From positions 81,505-145,504 of IMG/VR virus record IMGVR_UViG_3300020383_000006: a stretch of 64,000 bases of DNA. One strand, written 5' to 3'. The stretch comes from a virus. Of the stretch, positions 1,669 to 56,176 are shown one piece after another. The first letter of the stretch is position 1; every line of letters starts with the position of its first letter. Under the pieces are notes generated by a model. It was not told the DNA's origin. It saw only the letters and a list, made by a program, of their open reading frames with translations, and ran no database searches. The position numbers and the translations under genes were made by a program.

Positions 1669-2949
1669 TTAGCCTTTAAGGTTAGTTACCGCGAATTTAC
1701 GGAAGTATTGGTTTTCACCTTGACCTAAACCTTTACCAGCTTTAGCAGAACCGTTAGCTTGGGTTTCAACGAAAGGATTCGCCTTAATACCGTAACGAGT
1801 CTGGAAACCGATACGTGGCTGGAAGCTATCTTCCGCAGTAGCACGTACCATTTCTAGTGGAACGTATGGGCACCAGTATACGCCAGCATCCCAAGCGTTT
1901 TGACCTTTATAACCCAATGTGATATAATCACGAGTTGCATAAGGGTCAACGTGAACTTGATAACGACCAAGCAAGATACCTGCAAAGGTGTTAGAAGTAA
2001 CGTCAACGTTCAAGCGAGAAGCCAACTCAGGGTTGTAATCCAATACGCCAGCCATGTTCAATGCAGAAGCAACGTTAGCTGAACAGATTACGCGGTTTGC
2101 TTTACCACGACGAGTTGAAATTGCGATTGCGTTAGCTTCAAGTTCAAGTTGGAACATAAGCCCTTTGAACTTCTCAACCAACCAACGACCGTCAGAGTCA
2201 GCAGAAAGGTCAAACATACCTGGAGTTGCAGCATCTTGAGCACCAATTTGTGCTGAAGTGTTGATTGTACGTAACAACTCACGGTCTTGTTCCGCTACAA
2301 TTTCAGTAGAAAGAACGTTAGCCAATTCACTTTCAGCGTCCAAGTTGTGGATTTGCTTCAAGTCGTGACGCAGTTCGTGGGTGAAAGAAGCTTTCAATTT
2401 ACGTGCTTTAGTTGAAACGTCAGTACGCTCAATTGAGAACGTCATTTCTTGCCAAGGATCGCCAGCTGTTGTACCAAGTTCTTCAGCTGCATTAGTTGAC
2501 ATACCAGTACCAGTAGAAGTACCTTCTGAAGGATCGCCTGTACCGAAGAAATCAGCAGGGAAACCTGAAGTATCACCAGCTTGAGTTCCAGCACCAGAGT
2601 GCGCAGTATTCGCTTCGTCGTGTAATGCTTCAGCGCCAGTTTGTGAAGTATAACGAGCACGCATAGCGAAGATTGAACCAGTTGGTCCAGATAGTGGTTG
2701 AACGCCAGCTAAATCAAAAGCCATAAGCTGAGGACCAGCACGACGAACCATACGGATCAATACTGGATCCCAGTTTGAAACACCACCAGTTTGAGTAGAA
2801 TGCTCAGAAGATTCGTTCATGCCTTGCATAAATTTGATCTGATTCGTAAGCATTGACTCAGTTACGTATTTTTTGTGACTTTCACCGATCTGAGGGAACT
2901 TTTCGCTCTCAATCAGCTCATTCACTTTTTCAGTAATCATATTATCCAT
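1669..2949 (-). CDS. 23: Major capsid protein, T4 gp23-like
   Basis: 426 residues against 521 for T4 gp23. It forms the hexameric shell of the head. Recognised from the family pattern: an N-terminal prohead region, then SNWDPVLIRMVRRAGPQLMAFD, the FSIERTDVSTKARKLKASFTHEL segment, and the C-terminal GIKANPFVETQ/FRKFAVTNLKG. A gp21 cut is expected near residue 46 (MNE followed by SSEH), but the exact site is inferred. It is the last gene of the head operon (67-68-21-internal proteins-22-23), is followed by a strong terminator, and has its own TATAAATA late box 42 bp upstream, which fits the high expression a capsid needs. Codon use looks less AT-rich than that of neighbouring genes. Confidence 0.95.
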   Translation of the reverse strand: MDNMITEKVNELIESEKFPQIGESHKKYVTESMLTNQIKFMQGMNESSEHSTQTGGVSNWDPVLIRMVRRAGPQLMAFDLAGVQPLSGPTGSIFAMRARYTSQTGAEALHDEANTAHSGAGTQAGDTSGFPADFFGTGDPSEGTSTGTGMSTNAAEELGTTAGDPWQEMTFSIERTDVSTKARKLKASFTHELRHDLKQIHNLDAESELANVLSTEIVAEQDRELLRTINTSAQIGAQDAATPGMFDLSADSDGRWLVEKFKGLMFQLELEANAIAISTRRGKANRVICSANVASALNMAGVLDYNPELASRLNVDVTSNTFAGILLGRYQVHVDPYATRDYITLGYKGQNAWDAGVYWCPYVPLEMVRATAEDSFQPRIGFQTRYGIKANPFVETQANGSAKAGKGLGQGENQYFRKFAVTNLKG

Positions 2950-3009: not shown

Positions 3010-3756
3010 TTAAACTCGAGACATTACGCTGTCTAACCAAGAATTAGTTGGTTGATTCTGATTATTTTGCTCATTAAGCGTGTTATCTGAATCTTCTTTA
3101 CTATTTTCTTGACCAGGAGCTAAAGACTCTTTTAAATCTTCCAATGCGCCTTTATACTGTGACTCATCAATGAATTTAACTTTAGAAGCCATTTCCTGAA
3201 GTTTTTCACGTTTAGTCTCAGTCATGTCCTCAGAAACGGTTTCAAATACTTTAGAGCGTTTAGACTCAGTAATTGTCGCTTCCAATTCAGTTTGCTTGTC
3301 TAATAGCTTATCAATTTTCTGATTAGCTTCAGCAAGATTTTGATTTGCTTTATCCAATTCATTTTCTGAACCATGAGGAACTTGAACGTTGAATTGTTCA
3401 GCAATACTACCTAAACCACCAAGGAAACTTTCAGCAAGTTTAACCTTGATACCGTTGTCGACAGCCAGTTTGTTTTCAGACATAAACTCTGAAGCGGCAT
3501 GATCAACATATTTACCAATTTGAGGAATAACTTCTTCGTTAATATATTGTTCCGTTTTGTCTTCCATCTCGGTAACAACATATTCTGAATAGTTTTCGGC
3601 CAATGCTGAATACTTATCTTCAGCCTTAGCTTCCTCTTCAGTTCTAATTTCTTCTCGGGCTTCAGAAATCTGATTTTCCAAGACCTTAGAAACCTTCGTT
3701 TTAAAGTCTTCACTGATTTCAACGCCATCGAAGATTTTCATTAGATCTTCGTTCAT
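3010..3756 (-). CDS. 22: Prohead core scaffolding protein, T4 gp22-like
   Basis: 248 residues (T4 gp22 is 269), strongly charged and predicted almost all helical, with many Glu/Lys/Gln heptads, including about residues 130-165. It is the main protein of the temporary core inside the prohead; gp21 degrades it on maturation. LxE/IxE type tripeptides are scattered through it, as expected for a gp21 substrate. The C-terminus NSWLDSVMSRV is of the kind conserved in gp22 proteins. It lies between gene 21 and gene 23 as in T4, but here three internal-protein genes separate it from gene 21. Its own late box is at 3797-3804. Confidence 0.88.
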   Translation of the reverse strand: MNEDLMKIFDGVEISEDFKTKVSKVLENQISEAREEIRTEEEAKAEDKYSALAENYSEYVVTEMEDKTEQYINEEVIPQIGKYVDHAASEFMSENKLAVDNGIKVKLAESFLGGLGSIAEQFNVQVPHGSENELDKANQNLAEANQKIDKLLDKQTELEATITESKRSKVFETVSEDMTETKREKLQEMASKVKFIDESQYKGALEDLKESLAPGQENSKEDSDNTLNEQNNQNQPTNSWLDSVMSRV

Positions 3757-3825: not shown

Positions 3826-4245
3826 TTACTGTATGGAACTTAGAATAGTTTCTTTATTCTTTTTAATTGATCTTTCTATCTTTTTAAATAAATTTTCAAC
3901 GCTTTTAGAAGAAGAAACGGTTCTTATATCGTATAATCTAAACCCTTTCCACTCAGCCACTAATTTATCAGCCAAACGCATACCAGAAATATGAGTTTCA
4001 CCTTTTTCATGACCATATATTTCTAAAGTAGCAAATTTTCCACTTTGACCAATTAGATTAATTTTCATTAAATCTGAATGAAATTCCCCATCCTTTACTT
4101 TTACTTTTATTCCATCTTGATCAAATATTTTTGGGAATAATTTCATAGCTTCTTTTTTTGCTGATGAAAATAGTTCATTTTTATTATTGCGAAAATCAAA
4201 TGTTCCTGTTGGGGATTCATTCAGAAATTCTTTAAACGTTTTCAT
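3826..4245 (-). CDS. Putative internal head protein with capsid-targeting peptide
   Basis: 139 residues. It starts MKTFKEFLNE then S, nearly identical to the start of at least eight other genes here and similar to the T4 IPIII capsid-targeting sequence, which gp21 cuts after the final Glu. The rest (after about residue 10) is a mixed alpha/beta basic protein with a Lys-rich C-terminal helix (IERSIKKNKETILSSIQ), not matching a family I recognise. It is the third gene after protease gene 21, only 3 bp after the previous gene, and probably co-translated. Inference: it is taken into the prohead core, trimmed, and injected with the DNA. Confidence 0.75.
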   Translation of the reverse strand: MKTFKEFLNESPTGTFDFRNNKNELFSSAKKEAMKLFPKIFDQDGIKVKVKDGEFHSDLMKINLIGQSGKFATLEIYGHEKGETHISGMRLADKLVAEWKGFRLYDIRTVSSSKSVENLFKKIERSIKKNKETILSSIQ

Positions 4246-4248
4246 TGT

Positions 4249-4725
4249 TTATAAAAACCTCTTTGCTGATTCATTTGCAAGTTTTTTAATTTTTGCTAAT
4301 GTTAAACCACTTGCATCATGATTTCTATGACCTTTTACACTACCGCTAATTGAAGTTTTTTCAATTCCATTGACCACACCCCTACTATTGAATGTTAATT
4401 TGAATCTAAAAGAAACATCGACATCATCTAATGGAAATCCGTCACTACTAGAACCTCTGAATGTAGCTCTCGCATCAATAGTGGCTGAATCAGAATGAAT
4501 ATTTAATTGGGAACTAATATAGCTTGTTGTTAACCTACCATTGCCAGAATTTAAACTCCAACTTAACATTTTTGCTATTTTAGAATATCCTTTTTCAAGT
4601 ACTTTTAGATTAGCAATTTCTTGTGGAATTCTACCATTCAAATCATAAGTCTTATTAAAGAACTCAGGATTTTTTAAAAATTCTGGGAAATTTGATTCAT
4701 TCAAAAATTCTTTAAACGTTTTCAT
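4249..4725 (-). CDS. Putative internal head protein with capsid-targeting peptide
   Basis: 158 residues from ATG 4725. An in-frame start 24 bp earlier exists, but the ATG at 4725 puts the conserved peptide MKTFKEFLNE then S exactly at the N-terminus, with AGG about 10 bases before it. After the predicted cut the protein is basic, with a likely beta-rich middle (DSATIDARATFRGS..., DVSFRFKLTF) and a Lys-rich C-terminal helix. I recognise no catalytic motif. It belongs to the block of three internal-protein genes between 21 and 22. Confidence 0.75.
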   Translation of the reverse strand: MKTFKEFLNESNFPEFLKNPEFFNKTYDLNGRIPQEIANLKVLEKGYSKIAKMLSWSLNSGNGRLTTSYISSQLNIHSDSATIDARATFRGSSSDGFPLDDVDVSFRFKLTFNSRGVVNGIEKTSISGSVKGHRNHDASGLTLAKIKKLANESAKRFL

Positions 4726-4742
4726 TATTTTAAACCTATATG

Positions 4743-5000
4743 TTACCACTGTTTAAATACATAATCATCTTTACTTAAATACCAATTTTCGGTGTTGCCG
4801 TTTTCTAATTCTACAGCAACTTCATAATTGTATCTATCTTCTCTTTCTATATCCTTTACGATCACGACAATAGGTTTTTCGAAAGAATCAGGATTATCTA
4901 CTTCAGCAGCCAAATAGCTTTTTCCTTTTCTTAATGAAGGCGGATTCATCCAACCTTCATCATTCATGTCTTCATTTAAAAAATCTTTGAATGTTTTCAT
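4743..5000 (-). CDS. Putative small internal head protein with capsid-targeting peptide
   Basis: 85 residues beginning MKTFKDFLNE then D. The ATG overlaps the stop of gene 21 (ATGA), so its translation is coupled to the prohead protease, a strong sign that it works in prohead assembly. The mature part after residue 10 is acidic, with a small beta-barrel-like pattern (KSYLAAEVDNPDSFEKPIVVIV..., NYEVAVELENGN); the function is unknown. Confidence 0.75.
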   Translation of the reverse strand: MKTFKDFLNEDMNDEGWMNPPSLRKGKSYLAAEVDNPDSFEKPIVVIVKDIEREDRYNYEVAVELENGNTENWYLSKDDYVFKQW

Positions 5001-5644
5001 TTCTTAAGTCCTTTAACATAATCTTCTAATTTCTGAAGGAATATTCCTTCATCAAATTGATGAACAGGTTCTTGACCTTCTTTCTGAACCCAAATACCTG
5101 ATTCAGTAAGCATCCATTGCTTTGATTCGTTAATAGCGTTAACATAAGCATCAGGAGCTGAAGGGTTGTCAACACAATCGGTTGCTGTGAACATTAAATC
5201 ATCTTGAACGTATTTAGTACCGTTTCTTTCTTTAAGTGACCCTAAAGCACGAGTTGAAACGCCAAGGTTAAACCCGCCTTCTAATAAACCTTTAACGATT
5301 TCACCTTTTGGCGTATTTAAAACCAATGCTTTACCGTAGACGTCATTGCCTTGCCATTCTAATTCCTTAATAAGGATAGCCGCTTGGCTAGGATCAGCAA
5401 AAGGATATTCTGGGTGGTTTAATTCACCCAAAGCTCTACGTCTACTAACATAATCTCTGTCATAACGGTCAATAGCTTTTTCCATAACTGAACGTTCATA
5501 GAAACGACCATTACCGTTTTTGATTTCTGATTGTGCAAAGATACCCTCAATGAAAACTTGTTTACCGCTTTCGGTGTTTTCAGTAAGCATCTCAACTTTA
5601 TCAGATGATTCTACTAATAGATTGTACATTTTATTTTTATCCAT
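4997..5644 (-). CDS. 21: Prohead maturation protease, T4 gp21-like
   Basis: 215 residues (T4 gp21 is 212). A serine protease of the herpesvirus-assemblin/U9 type that cleaves core and shell proteins after (L/I)xE-like sites during head maturation. Visible motifs: FAQSEIKNGNGRFYERSVM near residues 36-54; catalytic His77 in GELNHPEYPFADPSQ; catalytic Ser130 in NLGVSTRALGS; and the TATDCVDNPSAPDAYV segment at the end of the core. The gene sits between 68 and three internal-protein genes whose N-termini look like its substrates. Its stop overlaps the next start. Confidence 0.93.
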   Translation of the reverse strand: MDKNKMYNLLVESSDKVEMLTENTESGKQVFIEGIFAQSEIKNGNGRFYERSVMEKAIDRYDRDYVSRRRALGELNHPEYPFADPSQAAILIKELEWQGNDVYGKALVLNTPKGEIVKGLLEGGFNLGVSTRALGSLKERNGTKYVQDDLMFTATDCVDNPSAPDAYVNAINESKQWMLTESGIWVQKEGQEPVHQFDEGIFLQKLEDYVKGLKK

Positions 5645-18600: not shown

Positions 18601-20592
18601 ATAAGAATCAGGACCAAAGAAATCACCGTCAGAATGACCGTAATATTTGAAACTGATAGTAACAGGCATAACCGCAGTTTCACCTGACTTTAATTCAACT
18701 TCAGAAACATCATAAAAAGATTTTCTAACGTTTCTTCTCAAAGTAAATTTATTTGTAACGTCATTACCTTGATCATCAGTGATATTAGTAATTTCGTAAG
18801 CATCCGCTTTATTCAAAGAGATTCTACTATTAGAATCAACTGAACCAGTAGCAGTAGAATTTTCTAATGATTTAACTTTTTGTTGTACTTGCTGTTTAGC
18901 CATTTGCAAGAAAACAGTAACAGGTCTACCTGCTGAACCAGAACCAACATCAATCGTTAAACCAGAACCGTTTGGGTTTCCAGTTAAAACGTAATTATTT
19001 GTAACGTCCAATTCCGTATTGTCATCAGTGAACTGACCGATCGCGTAAACTGGGTTTTGTTCAAGGAAAACTTGATTAGAACCAGCACTGAAAGATATTT
19101 GGCCACTTGTGTTTAATGTTCCAGTGAAACGTTTAATTGTAGAGAATGAAGTATCTGACTCACCTAATTCATTATAAAGTGACCTAACGAATTCTACGTT
19201 CATTGGAAACACTAATGAATTTTCAGACGTTTCTTGTAAACCAGAAGTAACGTTTACATCAAAGCCTAGTCCTTCAGTAGAAACAAAAGAATCAGAACTA
19301 GAAATAAAAGATGAACTCGGTGTTCCATCCGGCAACCTTAAATCAAATAAGTAGAATTGATATTCGTTCCCTGATTTTCTAATTGCTCTAACTCTACCAG
19401 TACCAACAGGTGTACCTGTTAAGTTTCTGAATGTTCCCTTTTGAAATGATTCAGTATCAGGCAAATGAGAATTAGCGTTTAATTGAACGTTAATGTAATA
19501 ACCTAACGCAGTAGAAATAGAACTGTTATTGATTATAGATGTTGTTCTAGCTTTATCCATAATCACGTTAGTTTTAGAAAGCGTTTCTACTCTATAACCT
19601 TTAACGTATGCAATACCAGGATCTAGTTGTGCCACAAATTGGTCTTGTGATTCAGTACCAAAAACCGTATCATGTTCTTCTAAACCAATACCAAATGATT
19701 TAACAGTATAATCACCAGATTCTTCATAAGTTCTTTGCGCAAGCGTATCATTTAGTAAACTATAATCTGATTTATCAACTTTGCGTTGAACTTCACCATC
19801 TTTAATACGGAATATTTCAAAACAATTATCCGGTAAATCATCCAATTGGTTTAATTCAAATTGAACAAGGCGCGTATTGACTCTTAAACGATCTGCTCCA
19901 GGAGCTGTTTCATTAGGCTCACCACTAGCGTTATCATAAAGGGAAGAGTCTTCATTGTGTGTTACAACCTCTTCTTCGTATTCAATACATACTGACTTAG
20001 AAGGTTCATTAGAATATTTGTCTAATAGGATTGTTTCATCAGCAACTAGAACGAATTTACCATTTAAGTAATAAACGCCACTAGAGATTGAAAATTTAGA
20101 ACCTTTTCCTTTAGTAATTACTGAAGCAGTACCGATGGTTGTTGTACCGTCTTCCGCGTAAATCGTAATAGAATCAGTTTCTTCAAAAATGTTTGATGAG
20201 TTTGTATTAGAACCATCAGTATATTCAATGTATGCTGTATGGTTATCCGTTTGAGTTGCTTCAACGAATTGTTTAAGGATAGCTTTGACTCCGCTACCGT
20301 TTTCTAATACTATGCCATCAACCAATTGAGATGAGATATTTGAAAAATTGTTAATGTTTAGTGTAATAAAAGAATATTCTGTCGAATAGTTTGTTTGCCC
20401 TGGAATAACGACCGACCCCTCTTCAAACGTATGGTCAGCGAACCGTTTAATTTGTTCATTAAACATACTTTGAAGTTGGTTCATTTCACGAACTTGCACA
20501 CCCCTTGCAGGTCTGAACAACATTTCGTGAAAGTTTTTAGTTTTATCGTAGTCGTCATAATATGGAGCTACTGATTTATTAACTTCAGTCAT
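15700..20592 (-). CDS. Very large DUF4815 virion structural protein
   Basis: 1630 residues. The N-terminal 400 or so residues carry the DUF4815 pattern (APYYDDYDKTKNFHEMLFRPARGVQVREMNQLQSMFNEQIKRF, then FEEGSVVIPG); this domain is found in big structural proteins of cyanophage and other marine T4-like myoviruses. The middle has DGRRLSDVIDFRPRV and DIGNIAQRVSNVEYYVSLNSLE; a repeat-rich region with Thr/Arg stretches follows near 1000-1050; the C-terminal part is beta-rich. It stands where T4 has genes 9-12 and wac, right after gp8, so a baseplate-periphery or fibre-attachment role is likely but inferred. Confidence 0.88.
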   Translation of the reverse strand: MTEVNKSVAPYYDDYDKTKNFHEMLFRPARGVQVREMNQLQSMFNEQIKRFADHTFEEGSVVIPGQTNYSTEYSFITLNINNFSNISSQLVDGIVLENGSGVKAILKQFVEATQTDNHTAYIEYTDGSNTNSSNIFEETDSITIYAEDGTTTIGTASVITKGKGSKFSISSGVYYLNGKFVLVADETILLDKYSNEPSKSVCIEYEEEVVTHNEDSSLYDNASGEPNETAPGADRLRVNTRLVQFELNQLDDLPDNCFEIFRIKDGEVQRKVDKSDYSLLNDTLAQRTYEESGDYTVKSFGIGLEEHDTVFGTESQDQFVAQLDPGIAYVKGYRVETLSKTNVIMDKARTTSIINNSSISTALGYYINVQLNANSHLPDTESFQKGTFRNLTGTPVGTGRVRAIRKSGNEYQFYLFDLRLPDGTPSSSFISSSDSFVSTEGLGFDVNVTSGLQETSENSLVFPMNVEFVRSLYNELGESDTSFSTIKRFTGTLNTSGQISFSAGSNQVFLEQNPVYAIGQFTDDNTELDVTNNYVLTGNPNGSGLTIDVGSGSAGRPVTVFLQMAKQQVQQKVKSLENSTATGSVDSNSRISLNKADAYEITNITDDQGNDVTNKFTLRRNVRKSFYDVSEVELKSGETAVMPVTISFKYYGHSDGDFFGPDSYVNIPFGEVPTEDGRRLSDVIDFRPRVSDSGDDFFSTGSVSGAIPTPYSVMRSDIEHYLPRIDKLYVDSRQNFRVAKGVPALQPKEPNDPPNSMVLYKIEIPAYTPDISEIDSIKVKNRRYTMRDIGNIAQRVSNVEYYVSLNSLESEADSRQIIDGETGMNRFKNGFLTDRFVDHSVGDFAWQNYHVSMSEQGELRPEFSLNAVDLEMNTSSSTGVVVNGQIVTLPFTHETYVTQNQRSETMNVNPYAVFRWDGAVTLTPSVDSWIDPIYTQPDVTYRIFNNGELTQTWNSWELNWVGGETSETETETSTNRTMRGRRERRISTTVVNTTTTTRTNIEVVNDKVIDTSVIPYMRSKEILIEGEGNRPNAKMHFFFDSVKINNYVKPVGGSYGNDVVTDGDGKFEAVFLIPNTSQRRFKTGQKQFIVTDEPNNNRQLSTSYAETMFTASGIRQVRRRTIVATRNIETSVTSRTTTQTRWVDPLAQSFLVERNGGGFITKIDVFFATKDQRVPVTLQVREMENGQPTQRIVPGADVMLYPSEVNTSEDGSVPTTFEFEYPVHLLDQSEYCFVILSNSNNYNAWIGRLGERNLGNNQYIVEQPYAGVLFKSQNNSTWTADQTADLQFRIYMANFDTSSNGLVYLENTELDKIVLENNPIETVDGSSKLIIHAPRHNYIQGGTITIQNATGGNGFALNEINGDWTITDVLDPNRIEITSTGIANASGFIGEDTVTVSNTIQATLLRPNVPTIELDGTSVEYGVKGTRGQSIDGNENSYSQLTQYFPVANDRNNLLPQPWVITNRLDEQNNIGGSRSLSFRLRMNSGNSNISPVLDLQGLSVITPCVLVDYKDQDLNDGSNNFANYRTRVSGLKLPADSLNIFLDIMQGDEADTVITARYGNSEEEVLESSWEPLNQIVYNTSPNEYRECEFAVEGRSEFTHYQVMIQLKSKNASMAPICKRLRCIANLKG

Positions 20593-51534: not shown

Positions 51535-52047
51535 ATGTACAATGATGCGATTGAAAAAGAATATTTGAACCATAAAACCTTCATTGATATTTGTAATTCC
51601 TTAACAAACCTTTCAAAATGTACCTTTACAAAAGTTGCTTCAGTTATTGTTGACCAAGACGGAGGAATTATCTCTACTGGGGTTAATGGAACAATTGCTG
51701 GTTTACAAAACTGTTGCGACAACCATTTTGAAAAACGTGATGACCATATTGAATATTCGGAAAAGTATGAAGTTCATGCTGAAATGAACGCAATTATACG
51801 CCTTGCAAGATCCAGTATTAAACCAAACCGCATTACCCTCTACACTTCCCTCTCACCATGTAAAAACTGCTTAAAACACATTTTAGCACTCCAAAACAAC
51901 TATGTGAAAGTTGATGCAATTGTTTTTGGTGAATTGTATCACCGTTATACAAAAGAAGATATTGAACAAATGCGTAATTATGCTTACAGTGCTGGTATCA
52001 AATTGATTGACATCAATGAAATGTCAAAATTATTGAATAATAAATAA
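51535..52047 (+). CDS. cd: dCMP deaminase-like protein
   Basis: 170 residues (T4 Cd is 193). Converts dCMP to dUMP for dTTP synthesis. The zinc-dependent deaminase signature is complete: HAEMNAI with H81 and catalytic E83, and PCKNC with C109 and C112. The NCCDNHFEKRDDHIEYSEKYEV insertion (about 59-80) before the HAE motif is typical of the phage and dCMP branch and has a possible second metal site (C60, C61, H64, H71). It is the first plus-strand gene. The next gene starts after 36 bp. Confidence 0.9.
   Translation: MYNDAIEKEYLNHKTFIDICNSLTNLSKCTFTKVASVIVDQDGGIISTGVNGTIAGLQNCCDNHFEKRDDHIEYSEKYEVHAEMNAIIRLARSSIKPNRITLYTSLSPCKNCLKHILALQNNYVKVDAIVFGELYHRYTKEDIEQMRNYAYSAGIKLIDINEMSKLLNNK
52039..52046 (+). 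promoter_or_regulatory. Late-promoter-like box before DUF6433-like gene
   Basis: AATAAATA on the plus strand, 38 bp before the ATG at 52084, overlapping the deaminase stop. The spacing equals that of the minus-strand late boxes. Confidence 0.45.
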
Positions 52048-52083: not shown

Positions 52084-52518
52084 ATGAAAACTTTTATCAA
52101 CAAAAACAAAACAGTTTCCGAAGCATTTGAGTTTGTAACAAAAGAAGCTTCAAACAATGATGAAAAAATTAAAATACTACAAAAACTTAAATCCAGATCA
52201 ATGAAATGGGTTGTACAAGCAATGTATACAAGGGATTTAAGTAAGTACCCTATACCTAAGTTTGAATACAACCATCGAGATGCTGGTATTTGTTATGCGA
52301 CAATCCATAATTCAATTAATAGAATGGAAAGTGCTTTCCGAGTTTATGATAAAGGTAATGAAGCAAAATACAATGATCTAATGACGCTTGTATTACAAGA
52401 ATTACCTAAAGAAGAAGCTGAACTATTGATTGATGTTATGGCTGGTAAGAAAACACGGGGGATTTCTAAAACCGTTTGGAAAAAGATTTACCCTGAATTT
52501 TTTCGATCTGAGCAATAA
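52084..52518 (+). CDS. DUF6433-like conserved phage protein
   Basis: 144 residues. Pattern: helical start (VSEAFEFVTKEASNNDEKIKILQKLKSRSMKWVVQAMY), LSKYPIP, then LMTLVLQELPKEEAELLIDVMAGKKTRGISKTVWKKIYPEFF. The end (LLE.L...EAELL.....K...GI(S/T)K.V....FP.F) is that of a family common in marine T4-like phages, which I recall as DUF6433; its role is unknown. The late-type box before it suggests late expression, with the FmdB-like and internal-protein genes that follow. Confidence 0.75.
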   Translation: MKTFINKNKTVSEAFEFVTKEASNNDEKIKILQKLKSRSMKWVVQAMYTRDLSKYPIPKFEYNHRDAGICYATIHNSINRMESAFRVYDKGNEAKYNDLMTLVLQELPKEEAELLIDVMAGKKTRGISKTVWKKIYPEFFRSEQ

Positions 52519-52577: not shown

Positions 52578-52841
52578 ATGCCAATTTACGATTACCGTTG
52601 CGGTTCTTGTGGAAATCAGTTTTCACAAAGAAAGAAAATATCTGAAATGGAAGCTCCATTAAGTGAACCTTGTCCGGAGTGTGAAAAGAAAGGTGAAATT
52701 ACAAAAATTATAACATCAGCCCCTGTTGTTGGATATTCAATTGCTCCAAGCCTTAAAACAACAGACAATTTCAATTCTAGATTAAAAGAAATGAAAAGTA
52801 AAGCTGGTAAGGGAAACACGTTTTCGGATTCAATAAGGTAA
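52578..52841 (+). CDS. FmdB-type zinc-ribbon protein
   Basis: 87 residues from ATG 52578, with AGGA 9 bases before it; a longer upstream TTG reading is less likely. MPIYDYRCGSCGNQFSQRKKI...EPCPECEKKGEITKI is the FmdB/Zn_ribbon_8 pattern with zinc ligands C8, C11, C32 and C35. The C-terminal part is basic and disordered, ending KAGKGNTFSDSIR. Such proteins recur in marine T4-like phages and may act as small regulators; the target is unknown. It is followed after 5 bp by the ART gene. Confidence 0.85.
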   Translation: MPIYDYRCGSCGNQFSQRKKISEMEAPLSEPCPECEKKGEITKIITSAPVVGYSIAPSLKTTDNFNSRLKEMKSKAGKGNTFSDSIR

Positions 52842-52846
52842 ATTGA

Positions 52847-53404
52847 ATGAAAAAGTTTCAAGAATTTTTAAATGAATCTAAAACCGTTACTGTTTACCAC
52901 GGCAATAAATACGGTACATCCAAAATAAATCCGAAACACATGGATTCCAGTATAAACGAACATGGAGTTGGGATTTATTTTACGGATGAATTTAATACTT
53001 CTAAAATGTACGGTGAACATGTAGTAAAAGCAGAAATTAACCCTTCCGATTTTATTGAATCTAGATCTTTTATAGAAAAATTAGGTAAGTCATTTTTTAA
53101 TCTATTAAAATATTTGTATAAAATTGAACCTGAAGGAATTTGGTATTTGGTAACTGATTATGGTATGGAAGTTTTTAATCCAGAAGATGTAGAAGAAAGT
53201 CATTTGTATGAACTATATAAAATTGCTGGGAAAGAACAAATAAGGCATATGCAACAAACTTTAGTCGATAACACTTCTGTTGAAGATTTTGTGAAAGGTT
53301 GGTTAAAAACAATAAAATACAAAGGCACTTACCAAAAACAACAAACGGGTGAAACGTTTTATATGATAATAGACCCTAATGTAAAATTAGAAAAAGTAAT
53401 TTAA
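52847..53404 (+). CDS. Putative packaged ADP-ribosyltransferase with capsid-targeting peptide
   Basis: 185 residues. Residues 1-11 are MKKFQEFLNE then S, the capsid-targeting/gp21-cut type peptide. The rest has the layout of small ART-fold enzymes (ART-PolyVal/DUF3990-like): VTVYHGNKYG (YHG at 17-19) for NAD binding, HGVGIYFTDEFNTSKMYGEHVVKAEI (about 39-64; GIYFT and the Ser/Thr-x-x-x-Tyr-Gly step), and a C-terminal ETFYMIIDPNVKLEKVI. The third catalytic residue cannot be fixed by eye. T4 packs the ART Alt in its head and gp21 trims it; this would be a compact analogue. Substrate unknown. Confidence 0.7.
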   Translation: MKKFQEFLNESKTVTVYHGNKYGTSKINPKHMDSSINEHGVGIYFTDEFNTSKMYGEHVVKAEINPSDFIESRSFIEKLGKSFFNLLKYLYKIEPEGIWYLVTDYGMEVFNPEDVEESHLYELYKIAGKEQIRHMQQTLVDNTSVEDFVKGWLKTIKYKGTYQKQQTGETFYMIIDPNVKLEKVI

Positions 53405-53435
53405 AAATTATAATAGGCTAAATATTAACCGTAAC

Positions 53436-53454
53436 ATAGGATAATTTATCCTAT
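53436..53454 (+). terminator. Hairpin after ART gene, weak terminator candidate
   Basis: ATAGGATA-ATT-TATCCTAT, an 8-bp perfect stem with no U-run after it. It lies in the 71-bp gap between two internal-protein genes and may be a processing or stability hairpin. Confidence 0.35.
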
Positions 53455-53475
53455 TCAAATTAAAGGATTAGAAAA

Positions 53476-53877
53476 ATGGATAAAACATTTCAAGAATTTT
53501 TAAACGGGGAACCTGTAGAACAACTAGAAGAAGCAACTTCTAGAGGAAATGGCTGGATGGAAATTGATTCAAATTCTAACGAAATAAAAAGTTTAGAATT
53601 TACTCTCGTAATGAAATCTGATGCAGATATGCCAAATATCGAATTAGATTTTAATTATGATAGCAGCAAACCAAGTCTAACGAAACCTTCTTTAAAATTT
53701 AGTTCAGGAAGATTCAAAGATGAACGCCACTATAAAAAGTTCACCAAAACTGTAAATGACCTATTAGAAAAAATAGGTGAGTTAGAATTAGAAATTGGTA
53801 TGGCTTCAGGTTCTTCTGGTTATTCTAAAGTTCAAAAAGAACTTAAGAAAATGGGAATAAAAGTAAAAATAGACTAA
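53476..53877 (+). CDS. Putative internal head protein with capsid-targeting peptide
   Basis: 133 residues beginning MDKTFQEFLNGE, with a second likely gp21-type site at VEQLEE then A (about residue 20). The remainder has beta strands (EIKSLEFTLVMKS, NIELDFNYDSS) followed by a long basic/amphipathic helix (KKFTKTVNDLLEKIGELELEIG) and GYSKVQKELKKMGIKVKID. Not matched to any family I know. AAGGA precedes the start by 10 bases. It stands first in the tight 53476-55363 set. Confidence 0.72.
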   Translation: MDKTFQEFLNGEPVEQLEEATSRGNGWMEIDSNSNEIKSLEFTLVMKSDADMPNIELDFNYDSSKPSLTKPSLKFSSGRFKDERHYKKFTKTVNDLLEKIGELELEIGMASGSSGYSKVQKELKKMGIKVKID

Positions 53878-53878
53878 T

Positions 53879-54064
53879 ATGAAATCATTTCAAGAGTTTG
53901 TAAACGAAGAAAAGAAAGAAGAATCTACTGAATATCAGAAATTCTTCAAAAAAGCGCTTAAGAAATTTGGTGTTGAAGAACCGGATGAACTTGAAGGCGA
54001 AAAAGAAAAAGAATTTTATGACTATGTAGACGCTAATTGGGAATCTGAAAAGGAAGAAGATTAA
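53879..54064 (+). CDS. Putative small internal head protein with capsid-targeting peptide
   Basis: 61 residues: MKSFQEFVNE then E, then an acidic helix, then FFKKALKKFGVEEPDELEGEKEKEFYDYVDANW. This last part (F...L(K)KFGV..P.EL....K.EF(F/Y)DYVD..W) is a short motif I recognise from the C-terminal ends of many phage small proteins; its function is unknown to me. It starts 1 bp after the previous stop and its own stop overlaps the next ATG, so the cluster is translated together. Confidence 0.75.
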   Translation: MKSFQEFVNEEKKEESTEYQKFFKKALKKFGVEEPDELEGEKEKEFYDYVDANWESEKEED

Positions 54065-54330
54065 TGAAACCATTTAAACAATTTCTAAAAGAAAAAAGAG
54101 TAGAATCAAACGATTTACTCGATGAACTTCAAGAAATTTATTATGACGTTTCTATGTCTGATAATGAATCAGGTTATATGATGGAAGTTATTGACTTCTT
54201 ATCGGATCCTGATGAAGAAGATCCTGAGCTTGCATTAGATAGTTTAGATAGAATTAAAAGGTTAGTTAAGAAATACTTGGGAATAAGTAAATTTTACGAG
54301 CTTGTTGATTTTATTAAAAGTTACCAATAA
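54064..54330 (+). CDS. Putative internal head protein with capsid-targeting-like peptide
   Basis: 88 residues. MKPFKQFLKE then K fits the peptide with LKE at the cut position. The rest is acidic and helical (DLLDELQEIYYDVSMSD, DPDEEDPELALDSLDRIKRLVKKYLGISKFYELVDFIKSYQ). Its last 17 codons are found again, slightly changed, at 55080-55133, evidence of a tandem duplication here. The start overlaps the previous stop by one base. Confidence 0.72.
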   Translation: MKPFKQFLKEKRVESNDLLDELQEIYYDVSMSDNESGYMMEVIDFLSDPDEEDPELALDSLDRIKRLVKKYLGISKFYELVDFIKSYQ

Positions 54331-54343
54331 AACAGGATAAAAA

Positions 54344-55075
54344 ATGAAATCATTTAAAGAATTCATAAAAGAAAGTACAGTACCTTATAATGTTTGGGGA
54401 CCTAAAAAATATGAAGGTGCTTATGGTAAAGGTTCTTTCGACAGAAAATTATTTGATGAAATAAAAAAAGGTTACAATTTTAAACGGCTTGGAATAAAAC
54501 CTTATGGTATAAGTAGATCAAATATGCTGTTTTTAAAAGATAGTTCAAAAAATATATACAAAATAAGGTTAGGATACCATGACAATATCATAGTTGGTGA
54601 TTTACATTCAGAATTTACAACTGAATTTAAACCAAGAATGAACACAAGTAGTTATGTCGACGATCCTTATTCATTTTTTAATGCGTTAATTGACGTTAAC
54701 GAAAAAGAAATTTATGAAGGATTGGTGGAAATCCAAAAGAAATTTTCCGGAGAAGGCATACCGAAAGTTTATGTTATAAAAATACCGAATGTCAATAAAA
54801 GAACTGGTAATACTGGTTTTAATTATAATTTTTATGAAGAATTTGATGATTCTAGTTACGAATTATATGAACTAGAAGATTATGGAATCAGTTTAATTGC
54901 AGCAAAAGGAACTGATTTAAAAGTCGGTCAAGAAATTTTTGTTGTAAATAATGAAAGACCTGGATACGATGCATTTTCTAATGGTAAGTTATATGCACCA
55001 TACAAAATTAAAAAAGTATTGAAACCGACGGAACTTGATACTTCTAGAGTAGGATCAATCAAGTTTATAGACTAA
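54344..55075 (+). CDS. Putative large internal head protein with capsid-targeting peptide
   Basis: 243 residues, the largest of the set: MKSFKEFIKE then S. After the predicted cut there is a mixed alpha/beta protein (RLGIKPYGISRSNMLFLKDSSKNIYKIRLGYHDN, then LVEIQKKFSGEGIPKVYVIKIP), and the last third has a small beta-barrel-like sequence (KGTDLKVGQEIFVVNNERPGYDA...LYAPYKIKKVL) like nucleic-acid or protein-binding barrels. No catalytic motif recognised. AGGA lies 7 bases before the ATG. Confidence 0.75.
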   Translation: MKSFKEFIKESTVPYNVWGPKKYEGAYGKGSFDRKLFDEIKKGYNFKRLGIKPYGISRSNMLFLKDSSKNIYKIRLGYHDNIIVGDLHSEFTTEFKPRMNTSSYVDDPYSFFNALIDVNEKEIYEGLVEIQKKFSGEGIPKVYVIKIPNVNKRTGNTGFNYNFYEEFDDSSYELYELEDYGISLIAAKGTDLKVGQEIFVVNNERPGYDAFSNGKLYAPYKIKKVLKPTELDTSRVGSIKFID

Positions 55076-55079
55076 CTAG

Positions 55080-55133
55080 ATGGGTATGAGCAAATTTAAC
55101 GAACTTGTTTATTTTATTAAAAGTTACCAATAA
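55080..55133 (+). pseudogene. Remnant copy of the end of gene 54064-54330
   Basis: Reads MGMSKFNELVYFIKSYQ-stop; the end of 54064-54330 reads LGISKFYELVDFIKSYQ-stop. The DNA match continues past the stop (TAAAA(C/G)AGGA) and into the next capsid-targeting start. This is the scar of a duplication of a whole internal-protein gene, most of which has been lost or replaced. Confidence 0.7.
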
Positions 55134-55147
55134 AAGAGGAAATTAAA

Positions 55148-55363
55148 ATGAAGTCATTTAAAGAGTTTAATTGTGGATCAGTAAATGAATCTAGATTCAA
55201 AACTTCTAGAGGAAATATTACTATTTTTGAAGGAATTGGCCCAAACGCCGAAAAATTCTTTATCAGTATAAAAGGTAAAGTTGTAGAAATTCCACCTGAA
55301 GAAGTTGGTCCTTTTGTTGATGCTGCTAAAGATTTTGAAAAATATTACATGAGCATGGCTTAA
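55148..55363 (+). CDS. Putative small internal head protein, altered targeting peptide
   Basis: 71 residues. MKSFKEF then NCGSVNE then S: the seven-residue core of the targeting peptide is kept, but an extra stretch lies before an NE-S cut-like site at residue 14. The rest is a small domain (TSRGNITIFEGIGPNAEKFFISIKGKVVEIPPEEVGPFVDAAKDFEKYYMSMA). GAGGA lies 7 bases before the start. A terminator follows. It is the last gene of the internal-protein cluster. Confidence 0.72.
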   Translation: MKSFKEFNCGSVNESRFKTSRGNITIFEGIGPNAEKFFISIKGKVVEIPPEEVGPFVDAAKDFEKYYMSMA

Positions 55364-55379
55364 TCTAATTCCATGGAGT

Positions 55380-55387
55380 AATAAATA
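55380..55387 (+). promoter_or_regulatory. Late-promoter-like box directly before a terminator
   Basis: AATAAATA on the plus strand, ending 1 base before the terminator stem at 55389. A transcript starting 6-7 bases later would lack half of the first arm. Candidate extra promoter for phoH. Confidence 0.35.
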
Positions 55388-55388
55388 A

Positions 55389-55427
55389 AATACAGGCACG
55401 ATTTTTAAATCCTCTGCCTGTATTTTT
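55389..55427 (+). terminator. Terminator between internal-protein cluster and phoH
   Basis: Perfect 10-bp stem AATACAGGCA (55389-55398) / TGCCTGTATT (55415-55424) with a 16-base loop, followed by TTT. With the last stem bases this gives TTTTT. Confidence 0.8.
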
Positions 55428-55450: not shown

Positions 55451-56176
55451 ATGTCTAAAAACAGTAGACTGAAGCGTGAAGCCAAGAAATATACTGATTG
55501 TGATATGAAGCCCTCCAACGTTGCCCAATTTGAACGTAAAAATAAACAACTCGAAGCTATAACTCCCCTCCAACAAGATTATATATCCGTCCTAAGGCAT
55601 GATGAAATGGTAGTAGGTGCTGGTCGTGCTGGTACGGGTAAAACTTACATATCATCAAGAGTTGCCGCTGAATTTTTCCGTGATCATAAATTTACTGAAC
55701 GTCTTATTCTAACCAGACCGAATGTTGAGGTTGGTAAAGGTATGGGTTATCTTCCCGGAGAGATTAGTGAAAAATACGCGCCATACTTAGAACCCTTTGA
55801 AAAAGGTCTTAAAGATGAATTGGGTGCTAATAAGTACAACAACGACCTTTATAAAAATATCATACCAACTCCGTTATGTTACATGAGAGGGAAAACATTT
55901 GATAACGCTATAATGTTATTAGATGAAGCGCAAAACACAACCATAGAAGAAATGAAGATGTTTTTGACTCGGGTTGGGACGAACTCAAAAATATTTATTA
56001 CAGGTGATGAATCTGACCAAAATGATTTACGGGTTAAAGAAAATGGGTTACAATGGTTAATTCGTGAAGCAAGACGTCAACATACCACCATTGAAATAAT
56101 TCAGTTTGGTATTAAAGACTGTGTTCGTTCACCGCTTTGTAAAGATATGTTACAGCTAATTGAAAGAGCTGAGTAA
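55451..56176 (+). CDS. phoH: PhoH-like ATPase
   Basis: 241 residues. P-loop ATPase of the PhoH/superfamily-1 helicase-like group, very common in marine phages. Walker A GAGRAGTGKT (56-65), LTRPNVEVGKGMGYLPG (87-103), Walker B AIMLLDEAQN with D158/E159, TRVGTNSKIFITGDESDQND (173-192). The exact role in phage infection (RNA metabolism or phosphate-linked) is unsettled. AAGGAAATTCTTCT stands before the ATG. Confidence 0.94.
   Translation: MSKNSRLKREAKKYTDCDMKPSNVAQFERKNKQLEAITPLQQDYISVLRHDEMVVGAGRAGTGKTYISSRVAAEFFRDHKFTERLILTRPNVEVGKGMGYLPGEISEKYAPYLEPFEKGLKDELGANKYNNDLYKNIIPTPLCYMRGKTFDNAIMLLDEAQNTTIEEMKMFLTRVGTNSKIFITGDESDQNDLRVKENGLQWLIREARRQHTTIEIIQFGIKDCVRSPLCKDMLQLIERAE

What the first reader, a model, noticed from the sequence alone, without database searches (positions are those of the whole stretch)
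52847..55363. Second cargo locus: six more genes with the same targeting peptide, on the opposite strand
Starts: MKKFQEFLNE, MDKTFQEFLNGE, MKSFQEFVNE, MKPFKQFLKE, MKSFKEFIKE, MKSFKEFNCGSVNE. The bodies after the peptide have no visible similarity to one another. A shared short N-terminus on different bodies, in a run of tightly spaced genes closed by a terminator, points to a secreted-like cargo system: a head-packaging tag plus interchangeable effectors. It could be used to find unknown injected proteins in related genomes.
Basis: partly seen in the sequence, partly recalled or inferred. Interest (0 to 1): 0.85.

Follow-up and report, generated by a model that had tools for sequence, protein, structure and literature searches.

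The report
Phage genes tagged for head packaging
Six unrelated small genes of a T4-like phage begin with the short peptide that phage T4 uses to load proteins into its head for injection into the host; the tag itself is long known, but this phage carries about 19 such genes against four in T4, which gives a testable list of candidate injected proteins.

Summary
Six ORFs at 52847-55363 (+) start with variants of MKxFxxFLxE, their bodies are unrelated, and a strong hairpin follows. The window is part of a 145.5-kb T4-like phage contig with recognisable gp21, gp22 and gp23. The peptide matches the experimentally defined capsid targeting sequence (CTS) of T4 internal proteins: aromatic residues at 4 and 7, hydrophobic at 8, Glu at 10. 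The same tag starts about 19 ORFs at five loci here, against four in T4; one locus lies between the prohead protease and scaffold genes. The motif is far above chance, sits at gene starts, and occurs in IMG/VR at 118 or more places against 0 for the reversed pattern, mostly in T4-like contigs. In relatives the flanking genes are conserved but the tagged genes are absent, different or moved; only 2 of 19 bodies have a homolog in the nearest relative. Most likely mechanism: late synthesis, docking to the gp22 core, trimming by gp21, injection with DNA. Packaging and injection are inferred; virions could not be tested. The kind of system is already known. New are the size of the arsenal, the turnover loci and unstudied cargo, including a weak ADP-ribosyltransferase match.

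The parts
52847..53404 (+). Tagged gene 1: CTS MKKFQEFLNE + 175-aa body, weak ADP-ribosyltransferase-like match (VYHGN ... GVGIYFTDEF ... FYMIIDPN)
   Evidence: (PF18760 ART-PolyVal E 0.0013, 20 bits, below the 31.2 cutoff)
53476..53877 (+). Tagged gene 2: CTS variant MDKTFQEFLNGE (one extra residue shifts the aromatics) + 121-aa body, no family
53879..54064 (+). Tagged gene 3: CTS MKSFQEFVNE + 51-aa acidic body of phrog_28651; homologs in relative G001 and in Vibrio phage TDDLMA also carry a CTS
   Evidence: E 2.5e-6; 47.5%, 8e-10
54064..54330 (+). Tagged gene 4: CTS MKPFKQFLKE + 78-aa acidic body, no family
54344..55075 (+). Tagged gene 5: CTS MKSFKEFIKE + 233-aa body, no family; the N-terminus weakly resembles the PHROG 'internal head protein'
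   Evidence: (phrog_2667 E 0.033)
55148..55363 (+). Tagged gene 6: split CTS MKSFKEF-NCGS-VNE + 57-aa body
55061..55147 (+). 87-nt imperfect repeat (78%) of 54258-54344: 3' end of gene 4 plus leader, a likely recombination scar in front of gene 6
   Evidence: D1
55387..55427 (+). Strong hairpin followed by T-run, terminator-like, closing the cluster
   Evidence: -16.3 kcal/mol, z -6.35
52039..52046 (+). AATAAATA late-promoter-like site 37 nt upstream of the gene at 52084, first gene of the run that leads into the cluster
   Evidence: 18 such sites 28-48 nt upstream of genes against 4 in the next interval
52578..52841 (+). Left flank: zinc-ribbon gene; adjacent to PhoH without tagged genes between in relatives G001 and G005
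   Evidence: (PF09723 5.5e-13)
55451..56176 (+). Right flank: PhoH-like gene
   Evidence: (PF02562 1.5e-60)
3826..5000 (-). First cargo locus: three further tagged genes (3826-4245, 4249-4725, 4743-5000) between gp22 and gp21
4997..5644 (-). gp21 prohead protease (predicted to trim the tag)
   Evidence: phrog_207 2.3e-68
3010..3756 (-). gp22 scaffold (predicted docking partner of the tag)
   Evidence: phrog_237 7.9e-50
1669..2949 (-). gp23 major capsid protein; predicted maturation site GMNE|SS resembles the end of the tags
   Evidence: (phrog_138 1.9e-145)

Best explanation
The six genes are a cassette array of T4-type internal head proteins. Each body is fused to a capsid targeting sequence of about 10 residues. 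The predicted order of events is: late transcription; docking of the tag to the gp22 scaffold core through the aromatic residues at 4 and 7; cleavage by the gp21 protease after the Glu that ends the tag; retention of the mature body in the head with the DNA; and ejection into the next host, where the bodies act as anti-defence or host-takeover factors. The tag is constant and the bodies are swapped at a few permissive loci. Shown here: tag identity, machinery, non-random position at gene starts, and turnover of the loci. Inferred: packaging, cleavage, injection and function.
For: The tag matches T4 IPII/IPIII (MKTYQEFIAE) and IPI (MKTFKEF); the same strict DNA pattern applied to T4 finds ipI, ipII, ipIII and 61.1 plus one other place not checked for a gene. 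T4 experiments assign targeting to residues 4 and 7 and processing to 8 and 10, and show that the first 10 residues suffice (PMC9026906). gp21, gp22 and gp23 are present. This phage's gp23 maturation site aligns as GMNE|SS, like the tag ends LNE|S. At residue 2 the motif is seen 12 times against 0.15 expected. IMG/VR has at least 118 pattern stretches against 0 for the reversed pattern, and 70 of 79 testable matches start within 20 codons of an in-frame stop; 12 of 13 larger contigs checked have a gp23-family match. The locus is empty in G001 and G005 with flanks conserved. At the gp21-gp22 site there are 3, 2, 2, 1 and 0 tagged genes in this phage and four relatives. Only 2 of 19 bodies have a homolog in G001, against 45 of 125 size-matched genes.
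Against: No virion or expression data. The six mature bodies have pI 4.2-8.4, unlike the basic T4 IPs. Genes 2 and 6 deviate from the 10-residue spacing. Single-sequence folds of genes 1 and 5 were uninformative. The evidence for late transcription of this cluster is one consensus site, with 60-73 nt gaps further along.
Confidence: 0.87

Rival explanations
1. The bodies are mainly structural or DNA-condensing core fillers that use the CTS but do nothing in the host; turnover is neutral drift.
For: T4 IPIII has a role in head morphogenesis (PMC9026906). Most bodies here match no family. The T4 IPs are abundant in the head.
Against: T4 IP1, IP2 and IP3 each inhibit a distinct type IV restriction enzyme (PMC12373910). 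CTS-tagged bodies elsewhere match ADP-ribosyltransferase, SAM lyase, GNAT and zeta-type kinase families. Acidic bodies are poor DNA condensers.
Confidence: 0.15
2. The shared N-terminus is a DNA-level element, such as a translation enhancer or a recombination or mobility sequence, and not a protein signal.
For: The starts are alike at DNA level (70-91% over 20-40 nt), and the 87-nt repeat in front of gene 6 shows recombination near a start.
Against: Synonymous codons vary and follow genome codon usage (GAA 0.89 against 0.88; TTT 0.81 against 0.73). The same peptide occurs at 46% GC with other codons (G002). Conservation stops at the residue that T4 gp21 would cut.
Confidence: 0.04
3. The six genes are ordinary cytoplasmic early genes whose N-termini share descent from one duplicated ancestor, without packaging.
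For: Tight clustering and one partial duplication.
Against: Bodies are unrelated while the first 10 residues are the same across five loci and across unrelated phages. Some tagged genes elsewhere in this genome have late-promoter-like sites directly upstream (19413, 60516, 62666).
Confidence: 0.05

Closest known systems
T4 internal head proteins IPI, IPII, IPIII with their capsid targeting sequence (Mullaney and Black 1996; Repoila et al. 1994, both as described in PMC9026906, PMC3012670 and PMC12373910)
   Same: Same N-terminal peptide with aromatics at 4 and 7, hydrophobic at 8 and Glu at 10; small unrelated bodies; variable loci in a T4-like phage with gp21 and gp22
   Different: About 19 tagged ORFs at five loci against four in T4; one locus inside the head-gene cluster; the six focal bodies are mostly acidic; no body is similar to T4 IPI-III; two tags have extra residues
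T4 Alt, packaged and injected ADP-ribosyltransferase (PMC9026906, PMC5512222)
   Same: A possible ADP-ribosyltransferase predicted to be packaged and injected (gene 1)
   Different: Gene 1 carries an IP-type CTS and resembles ART-PolyVal, not the R-S-E Alt family, and the match is below the curated cutoff
P1 DarA/DdrB/Hdf and giant-phage ejection proteins (PMC9024508, PMC5694885, PMC5512222)
   Same: Head-packaged, protease-processed proteins injected with DNA
   Different: Different and longer propeptides (SPN3US: several of more than 100 residues) and different cargo

Membership tests
T4-type CTS-tagged internal head proteins | N-terminal propeptide with aromatic residues at 4 and 7 (targeting) | tested here: met
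   F4 and F7 in genes 1, 3, 4, 5, 6; F5 and F8 in gene 2 through a one-residue insertion
T4-type CTS-tagged internal head proteins | Hydrophobic at 8 and Glu at 10 (gp21 processing site) | tested here: met
   Met at position 10 in genes 1, 3, 4, 5; displaced to residue 14 in gene 6 (VNE); gene 2 has LNGE and then LEE
T4-type CTS-tagged internal head proteins | Encoded by a phage with T4-type prohead core: gp21 protease, gp22 scaffold, gp23 | tested here: met
   phrog_207 2.3e-68, phrog_237 7.9e-50, phrog_138 1.9e-145
T4-type CTS-tagged internal head proteins | Tag conserved while bodies are unrelated and vary between relatives | tested here: met
T4-type CTS-tagged internal head proteins | Late expression with virion genes | tested here: inconclusive
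   AATAAATA site 37 nt upstream of the gene at 52084, two genes before the cluster; consensus match only
T4-type CTS-tagged internal head proteins | Present in the virion, trimmed after the tag, ejected into the host | not testable with these tools
   No proteomics available for this phage
T4 IPI/IPII/IPIII (the individual proteins) | Similar, basic mature body | tested here: not met
   No similarity of bodies to T4 at E 1e-3; mature pI 4.2-8.4 for the six
ADP-ribosyltransferase (ART-PolyVal, PF18760), gene 1 | Match above the curated cutoff, with catalytic motif | tested here: inconclusive
   E 0.0013, 20 bits against cutoff 31.2; motif-like YHG and GxYFT present; fold prediction uninformative
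Sec signal peptide | Hydrophobic core of 7 or more residues after a basic N-terminus | tested here: not met
   The tags are charged/aromatic (MKSFKEFIKE) with no hydrophobic core, by direct reading

The most novel reading that the evidence does not exclude
This phage carries an arsenal of about 19 injected effectors, several times that of T4, held in permissive cassettes that include a turnover site inside the head-assembly genes. The same tag marks a large, mostly unrecognised class of injected enzymes in environmental T4-like phages (ADP-ribosyltransferases, SAM lyases, acetyltransferases, zeta-type kinases).
Probability: 0.55. Interest if true: 0.72.

Novelty: new member of a known kind. 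Interest (0 to 1): 0.55.

Why it matters
Most phage genes of unknown function give no hint of when or where they act. A tag that predicts 'this protein is injected with the DNA' turns unknown genes into candidates for early-acting anti-defence or takeover factors; in T4 all three IPs proved to be inhibitors of different type IV restriction enzymes (PMC12373910). This genome provides about 19 such candidates, and the IMG/VR scan gives at least 118 tagged places, some with recognisable enzyme domains, so the long-standing question of what phages inject besides DNA becomes directly testable outside enteric T4.

Tried and rejected
Single-protein searches of IMG/VR with PhoH, the DUF6433 gene and gene 5 found no relatives. 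The one hit for gene 1 (L228) matched mainly through the tag, and its own neighbours do not look like ARTs by eye. tblastn of gene 1 against cultured phages found nothing. PDB sequence search gave only chance hits. AlphaFold of genes 1 and 5 from single sequences had mean pLDDT 36 and 39, so no fold search was made. The sigma-70 scan was at shuffle level. The original Repoila 1994 paper is not held, so it is cited through later papers. I first tested 'the match starts an ORF' only by the ATG, which internal methionines would also pass, and replaced it by the distance to the upstream in-frame stop. A signal peptide and a DNA-level element were considered and rejected.

Full report
WHAT IS THERE. 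The window is 81505-145504 of a 145,504-base virus record. It encodes a T4-type head: gp23 (phrog_138, E 1.9e-145), gp22 scaffold (phrog_237, 7.9e-50), gp21 protease (phrog_207, 2.3e-68) and a weak gp67. The nearest cultured gp23 is that of Pseudomonas phage pf16, 64%. They lie between a zinc-ribbon gene (52578-52841) and a PhoH-like gene (55451-56176). They are closely spaced and are followed by a strong hairpin with a T-run at about 55387-55427 (-16.3 kcal/mol, z -6.35).

MORE THAN CHANCE. In the called genes of the whole record, K.[FY]..[FY] occurs at residue 2 in 12 proteins against 0.15 expected from its frequency elsewhere in the same proteins. This is conservative, since genes 3 and 6 were lost by the crude gene caller. 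The strict DNA pattern ATGAARNNNTWYVANVANTWY has 13 matches, all at ORF starts, and none for the reversed pattern. Including looser forms there are about 19 tagged ORFs at five loci: 19.4-21.4, 31.1-36.8, 60.5-63.3, 85.3-86.5 and 134.4-136.9 kb of the record. The looser members are judged by eye, so 19 is approximate. Codon use inside the tags follows the genome (GAA 0.89 against 0.88; TTT 0.81 against 0.73), as expected of a conserved peptide and not of copied DNA.

WHAT IT IS. The peptide matches the T4 capsid targeting sequence. T4 gives MKTYQEFIAE (IPII, IPIII), MKTFKEF (IPI) and MKTFKEFIKE (gp61.1) when searched in the same way. In T4 the first 10 residues of IPIII suffice for packaging; residues 4 and 7 matter for targeting and 8 and 10 for processing; the propeptide is removed by gp21 (PMC9026906, PMC5694885). 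In this phage the gp23 maturation site aligns as GMNE|SS with FLGE|AA and SINE|AA of relatives, which resembles the tag ends LNE|S, INE|S and VNE|E. Gene 6 is informative: MKSFKEF-NCGS-VNE keeps the targeting half and the cleavage half but separates them by four residues. Gene 2 has an extra residue at 2 and LNGE in place of LNE.

TURNOVER. In the closest relative found with a long contig (G001, gp23 77%) the order baseplate, vsr-like, deaminase, DUF6433, zinc ribbon, PhoH, exonuclease-like is kept, but nothing tagged lies between zinc ribbon and PhoH; its tagged genes lie beyond PhoH and beyond the exonuclease-like gene, and one is the homolog of gene 3 (47.5%, 8e-10). G005 also has zinc ribbon and PhoH adjacent. 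At the gp21-gp22 junction this phage has three tagged genes, G001 two, L147 two, L156 one and pf16 none, with bodies unrelated to those here. Only 2 of the 19 bodies have a homolog in G001, against 45 of 125 other genes of 50-250 aa (Fisher P 0.034). This P value rests on one relative and is modest. An 87-nt, 78% repeat carries the 3' end of gene 4 and its leader to the front of gene 6, a likely scar of a cassette exchange.

ELSEWHERE. Of 79 matches with readable upstream DNA, 70 lie within 20 codons of an in-frame stop, so most are true gene starts. Of 13 larger contigs checked, 12 carry a gp23-family match, a few of them weak; 12 of 20 contigs, many of them fragments, carry the gp21 family. 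The strict pattern occurs 0-2 times in the 14 other cultured phages of the first comparison (three of them non-T4 controls), five times in T4, up to nine times in an environmental contig (G025) and 13 times here. A zero in GC-rich or divergent phages need not mean absence. Sixty-five diverse tagged proteins share only M1, K2, F4, E6, F7 and E10; most of these were collected with a pattern that fixes those residues, so this shows the diversity of the bodies and not an independent proof of the tag. Their Pfam matches include ART-PolyVal (9.7e-24), SAM lyase (up to 7e-19), zeta toxin/AAA_33 (about 1e-11), GNAT (6e-6), cytidylyltransferase and a double-psi barrel family; four match the PHROG 'internal head protein'.

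HOW IT PROBABLY WORKS. Late-type sites NATAAATA are concentrated 28-48 nt upstream of genes (18 against 4 in the next interval). They precede gp23, gp22 and the tagged genes at 19413, 60516 and 62666, and one lies 37 nt before the gene at 52084 that begins the run leading into this cluster. So the products are probably made with virion proteins (inferred), join the gp22 core by the tag (inferred from T4), are trimmed by gp21 (inferred from T4 and the matching site) and are injected (inferred from T4). The likely payoff is counter-defence or host takeover: T4 IP1-3 inhibit three different GmrSD enzymes (PMC12373910), and Alt is a packaged ADP-ribosyltransferase (PMC5512222). Gene 1 may be an ART (E 0.0013, below cutoff). 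For genes 2-6 no function can be named beyond predicted packaging.

VERDICT. Observation confirmed. My literature search covers open-access PMC only, so I cannot exclude a published CTS survey of environmental phages. New here are the size of the arsenal, the turnover sites and the unstudied cargo.

Noticed in passing
L225 967-1131 (T4 AF158101 18966-19130): T4 gp61.1, annotated hypothetical, begins MKTFKEFIKE, a complete CTS: a predicted fourth T4 internal protein. A relative is tagged in L089.
   Followed up: partly
L065 60-767; same cluster in L035, L038, L044, L049, L058, L076, L091: A CTS-tagged family of eight IMG/VR members; the one scanned alone (L065) matches Pfam S-AdoMet_lyase (E 9.6e-16, above cutoff): a candidate injected SAM lyase, which would be expected to counter SAM-dependent defence.
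   Followed up: partly
L034 6037-6816: CTS followed by a clear ART-PolyVal ADP-ribosyltransferase domain (E 9.7e-24), next to another tagged gene.
   Followed up: partly
L060 9873-11570: Three consecutive tagged genes, one a GNAT acetyltransferase (E 6.4e-6).
   Followed up: no
window 3826-5000: Three tagged genes inserted between gp21 and gp22; the same junction holds 2, 2, 1 or 0 unrelated tagged genes in relatives, so it behaves as a turnover site.
   Followed up: yes
L227 2501-2656 (Tenacibaculum phage pT24, record 145920-146075): The gene-3 body domain also occurs inside a protein annotated as DNA ligase 1; whether a tag is present there was not checked.
   Followed up: no
window 53432-53450: Palindrome ATAGGATAATTTATCCTAT in the gap between tagged genes 1 and 2, the only copy of its core in the record; role unknown.
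   Followed up: no
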